Shown in pieces: positions 41,145 through 45,076 of a stretch of 64,000 bases of DNA (positions within the stretch are counted from its first letter, which is position 1; every line of letters begins with the position of its first letter). Below the pieces are notes generated by a model. The model did no database searches, had not been told where the DNA came from, and saw nothing but the letters and a program-made list of their open reading frames with translations. The translations under genes and the position numbers were made by a program. Source of the DNA: Gammaproteobacteria bacterium 45_16_T64 (GTDB lineage Bacteria > Pseudomonadota > Gammaproteobacteria > Pseudomonadales > Ketobacteraceae); the NCBI GenBank assembly GCA_002162955.1, contig MABD01000024.1:124001-188000 (forward strand). Direction: 5' to 3'.

Positions 41145-41672
41145 TCAATCTCTTTTGTGACGGTTAATTCGTCTAGTCTGCCAATTTTTAATAATATGTA
41201 AGCGCCATAGATAGCGCACTGCAATATAGCTTGCAAGACCAAGGATGGTTCCGACAATGACACAGCCTAAAAGTAATGGCTTCCCAGCCGTTAGAATATT
41301 TTCGAGAATCGTAGAAAGCTCAAAAACCATCGGTGCACCGTTTGGATCGAGAGGTTCTCCTAAGAAAAAAGTCCCTACCAGGTAGCAGAAATAATAGAGT
41401 GGAAAATAAGTGAACGGGTTGCTTATCCAGGTGGATGCGGCAGCAACCGCGATATTCCCTCTAGCAATTAGGGAAAGGCCGATTGCCACGAACATTTGAA
41501 TCGGTAAAGGGATAAATGCTGCAAACACCCCAGCAAACATACCAGCCGACACGGAGCGTCGATTGAAGTGCAGTAAATTTGGGTTATCAACCAAAGGCCT
41601 CAAAATATTCAGCCATTTATTCTGCATGACTGTGTGTGGGTCCGGCATATGCTTTTTGAAGAATTTTTTCAA
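41145..41672 (-). CDS. DUF2062 membrane protein
   Basis: A 175-residue membrane protein with hydrophobic segments SAGMFAGVFAAFIPLPIQMFVAIGLSLIA, STWISNPFTYFPLYYFCYLVGTFFLG and ILTAGKPLLLGCVIVGTILGLASYIAV. The SNPFT..P motif is typical of DUF2062, whose function is unknown. The same gene sits between lol and comEC genes in Pseudomonas. It is convergent with lolD and divergent from comEC. Confidence 0.85.
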   Translation of the reverse strand: MKKFFKKHMPDPHTVMQNKWLNILRPLVDNPNLLHFNRRSVSAGMFAGVFAAFIPLPIQMFVAIGLSLIARGNIAVAAASTWISNPFTYFPLYYFCYLVGTFFLGEPLDPNGAPMVFELSTILENILTAGKPLLLGCVIVGTILGLASYIAVRYLWRLHIIKNWQTRRINRHKRD

Positions 41673-41759: not shown

Positions 41760-43937
41760 TTGTTAGTTAAGTCTGCAATAGCTTTTAACACGGGACTTTT
41801 GGTTTTTTTGTGCACAAAGGCCTTGTATTTCAGCTCCTGGACGGAGGCGTTTGCTCGTGTAGAGGGAGGGCTAGCTACGCTGGTGTTGTTTGTGTCTATT
41901 CTTGTGTTCTCACTCCTCCTGTATTCCAGAGGCTGTCGACGAACGTTATTCTTGAGGGGTACAAAGCTGTCGATTTTGTTTCTTTTGTGTGGGGTAGGCT
42001 TCGGTTGGGCTGGGTTAGCTGAAAAAAATAGGTCGAGTTCAGTTGTGCTCAAGCAAACTAATGTTGTTTGGGTAGGAGTAGTTGAGGGGATGCCGCTAGA
42101 ATTTGATGATGTAGTGGTATTCAGCTTCAGAGTGTTGGCCGATGATTCAAGGTTCTCGGTGGGAGCCCGAGCCCTGAAAGTGAGATGGGGTGCACCACCT
42201 GTTGCTGTCTTGCCGGGCCAGAAATGGGTGCTGCCATTGCATGTTGTGCCAAACCGTAGTATCGAGCATTCGGGAGCTGGTTTTGTCCGCTCAGGCGTAC
42301 TAGATCCTGTTCTGGTGTCGCAAGATTGGAGTTACCATTCGTTCCGAATGGAACTTCGAGAACGAATTTTGCAGTCAGTGGGTGGGAATCTCGGTAAAGA
42401 TCAAGGGCGGGCCGTACCTGTGTTGCTAGCCCTAGTGTTGGGTGATAGGAGCCTGTTAACGGACAAGCATTGGCAGCTGTTTAGTGATACAGGTACGTCC
42501 CATTTAATCGCTATTTCTGGATTACATATCGGGCTGATTTTTGGTTTGGTATATTTTGCAGTCTTATATGGGCTGATTTTTTGTCAGTTGCAAATTCCAA
42601 CCGTCCAAAATCAAGTGACTGCATCTATTTGTGCGGTATTGGTGGCGTGGCTATACGGTGCATTGGCAGGGTACTCCATACCGACTCAACGAGCCTGCGT
42701 GATGGTAAGTGCCGTTGTGTTATTGAGATATATGTATCCGACAACCAAGAAATGGGCTGCGCTTTTTATTAGCGCTACATTTGTTCTGTTGTTTGAGCCT
42801 TTTGCGATATTGCGTGCAAGCTTTTGGCTTTCATTTTTCGCTGTTATTCTAATTTTATTGGTATTAGATGGGCGTGTGTTCCCCTTTGGGAAGCTCCTTT
42901 CCTGGGGGCGCGTTCAGGCTGGGTTGTTTATTGGTCTATTGCCGCTTTCTGCTCACTATTTTGGCAAGGTAGTGCTTATTGGTGTATTGGCTAATGTTGT
43001 TGCAATCCCGTTGGTCGGTTGGGTGGTCGTGCCTCTGTCTTTGCTGTACAGCTTGCTGGTTTTATGTGGGGAGCTTACGGGAGGTGTTACGCTTCTTTTG
43101 TATGCTGCGCTAGAAGGTGTTATGTATGTCTTTTTTGCCCTATTAACTGAATTGCAGTCATGGGGTGGGGCGTTATTTTTCGCAAGCCCTTCAATTAAGT
43201 ATACGTTTGCTGCGTTGGTGGGGGCTGTAATCTTATGTTTGCCTAGCGCATTCCCTGGACGCTGGCTCGGGGTGTTGTTGATTCTGCCGCTATTGCTAGA
43301 TGAGCCTCACAAGAGTGAAAGTAGTACGATCGATATTGTGGGTTTGGATCAGCGTATTGTTATTGTTGAACTTGAATCGGATCTGCTACTCATCGTCCCA
43401 GCTGATCGTTCGAGCGGCCGAGTTAACTACTTAGTGAGGCAGTACTTTAGAGATCAAGGAATCAGTAATCGTCTTAAGGAGCCAATATTCGGTGTGTATC
43501 GGCAATGGATATCAGATGATTATGCCGTGATGAGAGTTAAGATACGCAATAATGGCTGGCGGCGTAGGGAGGCTGTAAGCATCGAAGGTATTGCGGCTTG
43601 CTCAATGCTGGAATATAGCATCGAGGACGTGGTGATTTCCCCTGGAACGCAGGCGGGAGGGCGATGTTATTTAACACTGAGAGGTGGGTGGGGAAGGGCA
43701 TTGCTGTTGGCGCCTGGGGATATAGATGAGCAATTGGCGTTTATTGCGTCATATGAGGTGCTGCCTGAGATAGGGTATCTGGACACGTTGTTTATAGAGG
43801 GTAGGCAACGATTGTCTGGGGCTTTGCTCAATCACGTTTCTCCGCACTCAATTGAATTCTTAATTGAAAATAACGGATCGGAAAGTCTTTTACACAGTTT
43901 GGAGAGCGTGAAGGTAAGAAATATTGTCCTAAATTGA
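41760..43937 (+). CDS. comEC: ComEC/Rec2-type DNA uptake channel with degenerate MBL domain
   Basis: A 725-residue polytopic membrane protein. The competence channel domain is clear: LALVLGDRSLLTDKHWQLFSDTGTSHLIAISGLHIGLI, GALAGYSIPTQRACVMVSAVVL and LRASFWLSFFAVI. The C-terminal ~220 residues occupy the place of the metallo-beta-lactamase nuclease domain, but DVGQG reads DIVGLDQR, no HxDxDH cluster is present, and the HHGS segment reads IEGRQRLSG; only LLLAPGDIDEQ is recognisable. The N-terminal OB-like region is also weak. The start TTG 41760 has AGG 9 bases upstream. Channel function is likely; nuclease activity is doubtful. Confidence 0.85.
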   Translation: MLVKSAIAFNTGLLVFLCTKALYFSSWTEAFARVEGGLATLVLFVSILVFSLLLYSRGCRRTLFLRGTKLSILFLLCGVGFGWAGLAEKNRSSSVVLKQTNVVWVGVVEGMPLEFDDVVVFSFRVLADDSRFSVGARALKVRWGAPPVAVLPGQKWVLPLHVVPNRSIEHSGAGFVRSGVLDPVLVSQDWSYHSFRMELRERILQSVGGNLGKDQGRAVPVLLALVLGDRSLLTDKHWQLFSDTGTSHLIAISGLHIGLIFGLVYFAVLYGLIFCQLQIPTVQNQVTASICAVLVAWLYGALAGYSIPTQRACVMVSAVVLLRYMYPTTKKWAALFISATFVLLFEPFAILRASFWLSFFAVILILLVLDGRVFPFGKLLSWGRVQAGLFIGLLPLSAHYFGKVVLIGVLANVVAIPLVGWVVVPLSLLYSLLVLCGELTGGVTLLLYAALEGVMYVFFALLTELQSWGGALFFASPSIKYTFAALVGAVILCLPSAFPGRWLGVLLILPLLLDEPHKSESSTIDIVGLDQRIVIVELESDLLLIVPADRSSGRVNYLVRQYFRDQGISNRLKEPIFGVYRQWISDDYAVMRVKIRNNGWRRREAVSIEGIAACSMLEYSIEDVVISPGTQAGGRCYLTLRGGWGRALLLAPGDIDEQLAFIASYEVLPEIGYLDTLFIEGRQRLSGALLNHVSPHSIEFLIENNGSESLLHSLESVKVRNIVLN

Positions 43938-44012
43938 GAAATGCCTAGTTAATGTTACTAAGTGAGTGTGGTAAATTGGGCTGCATTCAGTATAACGGAG
44001 AGCACAAATAAA

Positions 44013-44663
44013 GTGAGTGAATTTAGAGTGATTGAGTTTGTCGAAGCGGGTGGCCTTGTTATGTTCCCGATTATTCTCTGTTCCGTGTTGGCGATTGCAA
44101 TTATTGCAGAGCGTTTATGGAGTCTGAGGGCTTCTCGTATTACCCCGTCTAATCTATTGACGAAAGTCTGGGGTTGGATGAAGAGCAATCAGTTGGATGG
44201 CACTCGTGTTAAGGAGCTTAGGAATTCATCGCCACTAGGAAAAATATTGGCTACCGGCTTGCTCAACTCTAATCATGGGCGGGATATCATGAAGGAGTCA
44301 ATCGTCGATACTGCGACTCATGAGATTCATGAAATGGGGCGTTTTCTAAACTTGCTAGGTTCCATTGCCGCGATTACACCGTTGTTAGGCTTGTTGGGCA
44401 CGGTGATTGGGATGATTAAAGTTTTTAACGCCATTGTCATGCAGGGTGCAGGTAATGCTGCTGTCCTAGCGGGGGGTATTTCAGAGGCTTTGTATACTAC
44501 AGCCGCAGGCTTGAGTGTTGCTATACCAGCATTGTTCTTTCATCGATTCTTTACGCGACGTATTGACGAAATTTCAGTAATGATGGAGCAGGAGGCGATT
44601 AAGCTTGTCGATATTCTGCATGGTGATCGTGAGAGGGATGCTCAGGATGGTGATAGCAAGTGA
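44013..44663 (+). CDS. exbB: ExbB/TolQ-type proton channel protein
   Basis: A 216-residue inner-membrane protein of the MotA/TolQ/ExbB family. It has three membrane segments (GGLVMFPIILCSVLAIAIIAERLW; GSIAAITPLLGLLGTVIGMIKVF; SEALYTTAAGLSVAIPALFFHRFF) and the conserved RLWSLR after the first. GTG 44013 gives MSEFRVIEFVEAGGL, the usual start; GTG 43962 is in frame but atypical. It forms an energy-transducing pair with the next gene, overlapping it by 4 bases. Since TolQR would sit with tolB, this is more likely an ExbB for an unidentified partner. Confidence 0.88.
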   Translation: MSEFRVIEFVEAGGLVMFPIILCSVLAIAIIAERLWSLRASRITPSNLLTKVWGWMKSNQLDGTRVKELRNSSPLGKILATGLLNSNHGRDIMKESIVDTATHEIHEMGRFLNLLGSIAAITPLLGLLGTVIGMIKVFNAIVMQGAGNAAVLAGGISEALYTTAAGLSVAIPALFFHRFFTRRIDEISVMMEQEAIKLVDILHGDRERDAQDGDSK

Positions 44664-45076
44664 AATTTATTCGGCAACCTGTTGAAGAAGCCACAGTAAA
44701 CTTGACGCCGCTGATTGATGTGGTGTTCTTGTTATTGATTTTCTTTATGGTTTCGACAACCTTCACCAAAGAACGCCAACTTGTCATAAATTTGCCGGAA
44801 GCTGTTGGGGAGGCGCCAACGGAAGATCCTTTGCAGATAGAAATCGTGATTAGTGCTGATGGAGAGTATGCCGTTAATGGTAAGCGATTGGTGAATCGTG
44901 AGTTGGCGACACTGAGAAAGGCGATTATTGAGGTGTCTGAGGGCAATATGGATTTGCCGTTAACAATAAGTGCAGATAAAGATACGGCTTATCAATCGGT
45001 AATTTCAGCCATGGATGTCGCAGGCCGATTAGGGTTTACTCAACAAAGCCTACCGATAAGCTCTTTGAGCAAGTAG
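44660..45076 (+). CDS. exbD: ExbD/TolR-type energy transducer
   Basis: A 138-residue protein with one N-terminal membrane helix containing the proton-pathway Asp (VNLTPLIDVVFLLLIFFMVSTTF) and a periplasmic domain (LQIEIVISADGEYAVNGKRLV). The GTG start overlaps the exbB stop. It lies directly before lpxK, the same exbB-exbD-lpxK-kdsB order as in Pseudomonas, hinting at a link to lipid A supply that has no proven mechanism. Confidence 0.92.
   Translation: MKFIRQPVEEATVNLTPLIDVVFLLLIFFMVSTTFTKERQLVINLPEAVGEAPTEDPLQIEIVISADGEYAVNGKRLVNRELATLRKAIIEVSEGNMDLPLTISADKDTAYQSVISAMDVAGRLGFTQQSLPISSLSK

What the first reader, a model, noticed from the sequence alone, without database searches (positions are those of the whole stretch)
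43270..43937. ComEC with an unrecognisable nuclease domain
Seen: the channel domain is well conserved, but the C-terminal ~220 residues lack DVGQG, HxDxDH and HHGS motifs; only a GDID remnant is visible. Known: the ComEC C-terminal MBL domain is thought to degrade the non-transported strand. Inference: either DNA uptake here uses a different nuclease, or this ComEC moves something else, or the domain is decaying.
Basis: partly seen in the sequence, partly recalled or inferred. Interest (0 to 1): 0.5.

Follow-up and report, generated by a model that had tools for sequence, protein, structure and literature searches.

The report
DNA-uptake channel with a dead nuclease
The DNA-uptake channel ComEC of this bacterial family still carries its usual nuclease-shaped tail, but the residues that would hold the metal for cutting DNA are gone, which offers a natural test of whether that nuclease is needed for DNA uptake.

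Summary
ComEC (41760-43937, +) has a conserved channel, but its last ~210 residues lack the metallo-beta-lactamase (MBL) motifs and match no Pfam family. The same is true of all 14 ComEC proteins found in the 15 held genomes of its family (Ketobacteraceae, inferred from contigs shared with named records). All 34 ComEC-positive genomes of other families of the order sampled still score as MBL. The tail is neither foreign nor shredded. Its profile aligns end to end with intact ComEC MBL domains (92.7% probability; shuffled controls at most 0.8%), two cysteines are shared by both sets, and a model built from family sequences alone (pLDDT 83) matches the ComEC MBL crystal structure first (9ic4, Z 11.0, tied with another MBL protein). 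No ligand column keeps His or Asp across the family. In the few unsaturated pairs dN/dS of the tail is ~0.3. I conclude it is a pseudo-nuclease domain, most likely kept for structure or DNA guidance. ComEA, DprA, PilQ and ComM are present. An EndA-type nuclease is absent from the window genome. A thermonuclease-family protein, found in all 15 family genomes, is an unproven candidate substitute.

The parts
41760..43937 (+). comEC gene, 725 codons, TTG start, intact
   Evidence: single ComEC in the genome
42057..42329 (+). OB-fold region, residues 100-190
   Evidence: full-length model: Z 7.3 over 85 residues to the OB domain of Moorella glycerini ComEC, 9iew, tied with other OB-fold proteins; Pfam DUF4131 at residues 41-162, E 6.5e-6 but below cut-off
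42432..43244 (+). Competence (channel) domain, residues 225-495
   Evidence: PF03772, E 2.6e-49
43299..43934 (+). Dead MBL-fold domain (pseudo-nuclease), residues 514-725
   Evidence: profile alignment with intact ComEC MBL, AF2 model and match to 9ic4, no Pfam match
43476..43487 (+). Stretch aligned with the end of the lost motif II (HxDxDH); the first His and middle Asp of the motif fall in a gap
43506..43508 (+). Trp583, invariant in 14 of 14 family tails, at the end of the helix that follows the lost motif II
43599..43601 (+). Cys614, first of two cysteines conserved in both intact and dead domains
43665..43667 (+). Cys636, second conserved cysteine
43716..43727 (+).
41145..41672 (-). DUF2062 protein, upstream neighbour (synteny anchor)
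43962..44663 (+). ExbB-type protein, downstream neighbour (synteny anchor)
44660..45076 (+). ExbD-type protein (synteny anchor)

Best explanation
The tail of this ComEC is a pseudo-nuclease. It descends from the normal ComEC MBL domain, keeps the MBL fold and probably a disulphide between Cys614 and Cys636, and has lost the metal ligands, so it should not cut DNA by the known two-metal mechanism. The loss most likely happened once, before the family diversified, and the domain has been kept since. Most likely it still does a structural job: with the OB-fold it holds or guides the incoming DNA at the outer mouth of the channel. The non-transported strand would be removed by another periplasmic nuclease or simply displaced while the other strand is pulled in. 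Shown by computation: descent, fold, loss of ligands, family-wide spread, retention of the other competence genes, and purifying selection on the tail in three related pairs. Inferred: that it is inactive in vitro, that a disulphide forms, the guide role, and the replacement step.
For: No Lactamase match in 14 of 14 family tails against 15 of 15 intact controls. Profile-profile alignment over 230 columns, 92.7% probability; one reversed and 39 column-shuffled controls at most 0.8%. In the 14-row family alignment the only columns with His, Asp, Glu or Cys in 7 or more rows are the two Cys columns (14 each) and one Glu column (7); the intact set keeps 14 such columns in at least 14 of 15 rows. 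None of the mapped ligand columns keeps its residue. AF2 model from family sequences only: pLDDT 83.1, pTM 0.82; best match in the second look 9ic4, the ComEC MBL domain, Z 11.0 over 174 residues, with the MBL esterase Pce tied at 10.2; again first, Z 11.1, for the full-length model. dN/dS 0.27-0.34 in the tail against 0.10-0.12 in the channel in pairs of L004, L005 and L006. Ordinary comEC neighbourhood. Above cut-off in the family: ComEA 14 of 15, DprA 14 of 15, PilQ 14 of 15, ComM 15 of 15 genomes. Precedent: pneumococcal ComEC keeps 2 of 7 ligand positions, and Silale et al. suggest that, if inactive, it may be kept as a guide for the DNA.
Against: The tail evolves faster than the channel: the nonsynonymous difference ratio tail/channel is 1.30-2.24 over the 23 family pairs listed, against 0.66-3.04 over the 40 intact pairs listed, so constraint is relaxed. 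No pair with the window protein itself was close enough to measure. Ligand mutants lost transformation in Legionella pneumophila (passages of PMC12455585), so a dead domain might be expected to cost uptake in a gammaproteobacterium. Net charge is not consistently positive (-7 in the window tail; -7 to +10 in the family), so a DNA-guiding role gets no support from charge. Foldseek's own top-50 table does not show 9ic4 and its best E-value is only 4e-4. I saw no report on natural transformation in this family (15 rows shown of 1,763 papers).
Confidence: 0.6

Rival explanations
1. Slow decay: the nuclease became dispensable and the tail is drifting, held only by the need to fold next to the channel.
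For: Tail pN is about twice that of the channel in close pairs, and only 5 residues are invariant over 14 rows, 7 over 12 rows.
Against: All 14 tails are uninterrupted frames; dN/dS ~0.3 in the measurable pairs, both cysteines 14 of 14, confident fold.
Confidence: 0.21
2. ComEC in this family no longer works in transformation and has another role, or uptake is lost.
For: Ligand mutants lose transformation in L. pneumophila (passages).
Against: Channel dN/dS ~0.1 in the measurable pairs and retention of ComEA, DprA, PilQ and ComM. The ComM family matches all 14 control genomes, DprA 10 of 14, and PilQ also serves pili, so this is not decisive.
Confidence: 0.14
3. The former active site has gained a new, non-metal catalytic or binding activity.
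For: Gly567 and Trp583 are invariant in 14 of 14; Gln658 in 13 of 14 stands where the intact set has an invariant Glu.
Against: No conserved polar set that would form a new catalytic site: apart from the cysteines, no His, Asp or Glu column exceeds 7 of 14.
Confidence: 0.04

Closest known systems
ComEC C-terminal MBL nuclease domain (Moorella glycerini 9ic4; Moorella thermoacetica and Bacillus subtilis CTD)
   Same: Same position after the channel, same fold (Z 11.0), colinear profile alignment
   Different: Metal ligands, DVGQG and HHGS are lost; not recognised by Pfam
Streptococcus pneumoniae ComEC with a probably inactive MBL domain, plus EndA
   Same: MBL-fold tail retained without a proper metal site (Baker 2016 passages)
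   Different: Pneumococcus keeps 2 of 7 ligand positions and uses EndA; here no ligand column is kept across the family, and the window genome and 13 of the other 14 family genomes have no PF01223 match. Most genomes of other families lack PF01223 too (3 of 42 have it), so its absence is normal for the order
Helicobacter pylori and other ComEC proteins without an MBL domain
   Same: No nuclease motif by family search
   Different: H. pylori ComEC ends before the domain (passage); here a full-length domain with a predicted fold remains

Membership tests
ComEC / Competence family | Competence channel domain PF03772 above cut-off | tested here: met
   168 bits, cut-off 23
ComEC / Competence family | N-terminal OB-fold (DUF4131) | tested here: inconclusive
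   Two weak lines that agree: DUF4131 E 6.5e-6 but below cut-off (26.4 against 31.6), and residues 100-190 match the ComEC OB domain 9iew at Z 7.3, tied with other OB-fold proteins and under the tool's Z 8 guide
ComEC / Competence family | Single-stranded DNA import | not testable with these tools
   needs an experiment
ComEC MBL nuclease domain | MBL fold | tested here: met
   Model pLDDT 83.1; first match 9ic4, Z 11.0 over 174 residues, tied with MBL protein 2bib at 10.2
ComEC MBL nuclease domain | Metal ligands of motif II (HxDxDH) and motif IV (Asp), and the HHGS motif | tested here: not met
   among 98 aligned ComEC from other families clear loss was seen only in L069 and L121
ComEC MBL nuclease domain | Mn-dependent nuclease activity | not testable with these tools
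   needs an assay
Pneumococcal arrangement (dead MBL plus EndA) | MBL domain without intact ligand set | tested here: met
Pneumococcal arrangement (dead MBL plus EndA) | EndA-family nuclease (PF01223) in the genome | tested here: not met
   no match in the window genome (97% complete); 1 of 15 family genomes, G001, has one (29 bits, cut-off 23)

The most novel reading that the evidence does not exclude
Ketobacteraceae import transforming DNA without any nuclease inside ComEC. The dead, disulphide-held MBL domain acts as a strand-separating guide, and the second strand is displaced or removed by a separate nuclease such as the thermonuclease-family protein that lies within 10 kb of pilQ in 7 of the 15 genomes. 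Similar cryptic dead domains could hide among the almost half of ComEC proteins said to lack this domain.
Probability: 0.18. Interest if true: 0.65.

Novelty: new variant of a known kind. Interest (0 to 1): 0.42.

Why it matters
Silale et al. 2021 call it an open question how ComEC proteins without this domain deal with the second DNA strand (discussion section read). A family with a folded but dead domain, which includes the genus Ketobacter (cultured species, recalled) and the complete genome of strain HdN1, is a natural experiment on that question. It also shows that a Pfam-negative tail does not mean the domain is missing, so counts of domain loss made with Pfam (Pimentel and Zhang 2018, passages) may partly count dead domains as lost ones.

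Tried and rejected
Wrong frame or truncated gene: rejected; the frame is open and the tail is colinear with 13 relatives. Replacement by a foreign domain: rejected by profile alignment and model. A standalone ComEC-type MBL protein in trans: a profile of 15 intact ComEC MBL domains found six matches in 5 of 15 family genomes. I read three of the six and scanned them. One in the window genome is a 339-residue MBL protein of no named family (Lactamase_B, best NCBIfam matches far under cut-off); its N-terminus looks hydrophobic by eye and matches of similar size and model range occur in G001 and G002, so an exported MBL enzyme in this genus is not excluded. The other in the window genome is a general MBL hydrolase. 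The one in G012 resembles the anti-phage protein Avs1a (221 bits, cut-off 420). None is shared across the family. Endonuclease I (PF04231): 3 of 15 family genomes, not the window's. Thermonuclease family (PF00565): 15 of 15 family genomes, but also 21 of 42 others, and none in G039, which has its own ligand loss, so no clean link.

A first genome-contig scan with the whole protein found nothing. The first motif table read some loci on the wrong strand and was replaced. The channel tree used 92 rows; 26 others were dropped because a start motif was not found or the piece was short. Five of the 92 rows (L015, L101, L114, L136, L140) lack a full tail and were wrongly labelled intact; with them left uncounted the result is the same, four changes in all and one for the family. 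The family is one side of a branch with SH-aLRT only 79, and the tree warns of long branches, so a single origin is likely, not proven. One search lists 23 family pairs above 55% channel identity and the 40 most similar of 301 prefiltered intact pairs; most family pairs are saturated or nearly so at synonymous sites. L015, a second ComEC fragment from G016, runs off its contig and has no tail to score.

Full report
What is there. The window holds one comEC gene at 41760-43937 (+), 725 codons, the only ComEC found in a 6.49 Mb, 97% complete genome. Its neighbours are an FtsX-type permease and an ABC ATPase, a DUF2062 protein, then ExbB, ExbD, LpxK and a cytidylyltransferase. By eye, a similar order surrounds comEC in the four family loci I listed and in part in two relatives with an intact domain, so this looks like the ordinary comEC locus.

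The missing motifs. Pfam sees the channel (PF03772, E 2.6e-49) and a weak DUF4131 but nothing in the tail. Of 57 genomes of the order searched, 48 have a ComEC match at E 1e-10, 14 of them in the window's family. Those 14 lack DVGQG, HxDxDH and HHGS in the tail; two or three carry an unrelated DVGKG- or DLGKG-like string elsewhere in it. The 34 matching genomes of other families each have a ComEC scoring 97 to 353 bits with a profile of intact ComEC MBL domains, 15 of them being rows of that profile; the family members score at most 2.3 bits. One of the 34, L069, has lost ligands although it still scores, and one, L066, is split by a frame break. A family-wide search found ComEC in 14 of 15 held genomes, the miss being 54% complete.

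Whose genome. A named scan returned 80 loci. Another same-genus record, NORP69, is titled Moraxellaceae. Ketobacteraceae is a family of Pseudomonadales in the NCBI taxonomy, which leaves HdN1 unclassified. The family name for this group is therefore my inference. Of the 80 named loci, 11 belong to the family; their tails are the same sequences as 11 of the 14 above, not new evidence. Of the 69 others, 55 show all three motifs by pattern. The remaining 14 are eight that run off a contig, two with HHGA, one split into two frames (L154), one with a variant motif II (L130), and L121 and L097.

Descent and fold. The family tail profile aligns with the intact profile over 230 columns with 92.7% probability; one reversed and 39 column-shuffled versions reach at most 0.8%. 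Two cysteines are invariant in 14 of 14 dead tails and 15 of 15 intact ones. An AlphaFold2 model of the window tail from 12 family sequences has pLDDT 83.1 and pTM 0.82. Foldseek's own table is modest: best E 4e-4, mostly MBL proteins near the top, 9ic4 not among the 50 rows shown. A full-length model (pLDDT 73.0, pTM 0.64) gives the same first match for 519-725 (Z 11.1) and, lower down, the ComEC OB domain 9iew for 100-190 (Z 7.3).

Loss of the site. Mapping the ligands of the intact domain onto the family leaves no column that keeps His or Asp: the first His and the middle Asp of motif II fall in a gap, and the motif IV Asp and HHGS columns are mixed. Across the 14 tails no column has His or Asp in 7 or more rows, while the intact set has 14 columns of His, Asp, Glu or Cys in at least 14 of 15 rows. 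Among the 98 other ComEC, clear ligand loss appears only in L069 and L121; 14 rows have Phe at a later His, and one has Asn at a motif II Asp. Five further tails did not align: four run off a contig end, and one from a clostridial MAG (L097) looks like another dead tail by eye.

Selection. In the three unsaturated family pairs (L004, L005, L006, one genus) the tail has dN 0.23-0.26 and dS 0.76-0.86, against dN 0.106-0.112 and dS 0.88-1.10 in the channel. The tail is constrained there, but less than the channel. The window protein is too far from its relatives for such a measure. The fewest changes on the channel tree is four for the four dead groups, in line with repeated independent loss, with the tree's warnings in mind.

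The rest of the machinery. Above their cut-offs: ComEA 14 of 15, DprA 14 of 15, PilQ 14 of 15, ComM 15 of 15 family genomes; the misses are in genomes 54% or 84% complete. In the window genome ComEA is a 103-residue protein with HHH_3. The EndA family is missing in the window genome and 13 of 14 relatives, but also in 39 of 42 genomes of other families. A thermonuclease-family protein of 331 residues lies about 8 kb from pilQ in the window genome, beside maeB-like, ponA-like and pilMNOP-like genes (names recalled from sequence). By coordinates it is within 10 kb of the best pilQ in 7 of 15 family genomes and elsewhere in the others, some of which are contig breaks. The family occurs in 21 of 42 other genomes, so it need not be tied to the loss and is only a candidate. 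Its export was not tested.

Literature. Passages of Baker 2016 (PMC5031224) report pneumococcal ComEC with 2 of 7 ligand positions and H. pylori without the domain. The discussion of Silale 2021 (PMC8579336) reports a 10- to 100-fold drop in a B. subtilis ligand mutant, suggests a guide role for an inactive domain, and calls the fate of the second strand in domain-less ComEC open. Passages of PMC12455585 report loss of transformability in L. pneumophila for mutants other than S662A. Passages of PMC6299819 count domains with Pfam. Passages of PMC11784314 on Deinococcus EndA did not bear on the case. A search naming Ketobacter, HdN1, ComEC and competence showed no paper on this family among the 15 rows listed; a second, Ketobacter with genome and alkane, listed 8 papers, none with competence in its title.

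Verdict. The tail is a dead MBL domain with its fold predicted intact, fixed in this family. That part I hold at about 0.95. That it is kept to guide DNA in a working ComEC, with the strand step done by something else, I hold at about 0.6.

Noticed in passing
L069 (G039, another family of the order), ComEC tail: A second, separate loss: HxDxDH reads GGGAEH and HHGS reads SHGG while the rest of the MBL domain is still recognisable (222 bits).
   Followed up: partly
L121 (Competibacteraceae MAG), ComEC tail: Partial loss: motif II Asp to Gln, HHGS reads HHGH and a later His is Tyr, in an otherwise normal MBL domain.
   Followed up: partly
L097 (Clostridia MAG), ComEC tail: Full-length tail without MBL motifs, 12.5 bits with the proteobacterial MBL profile; looks like another cryptic dead domain.
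   Followed up: no
L066 (G038): The ComEC frame breaks within the MBL domain: a 649-residue frame ends early and a 149-residue frame carries the rest.
   Followed up: no
L175:1947-2942: Thermonuclease-family protein near the pil genes in the window's genome; the family is present in all 15 family genomes searched.
   Followed up: partly
L086, L090, L092, L094, L103, L119 and eight other loci: A His of the ComEC MBL domain that is otherwise conserved (H216 in alignment A1 numbering) is Phe in 14 of 98 rows.
   Followed up: no
L046:1357-2436 (G012): MBL protein resembling the anti-phage protein Avs1a (221 bits, cut-off 420) beside a second gene.
   Followed up: no
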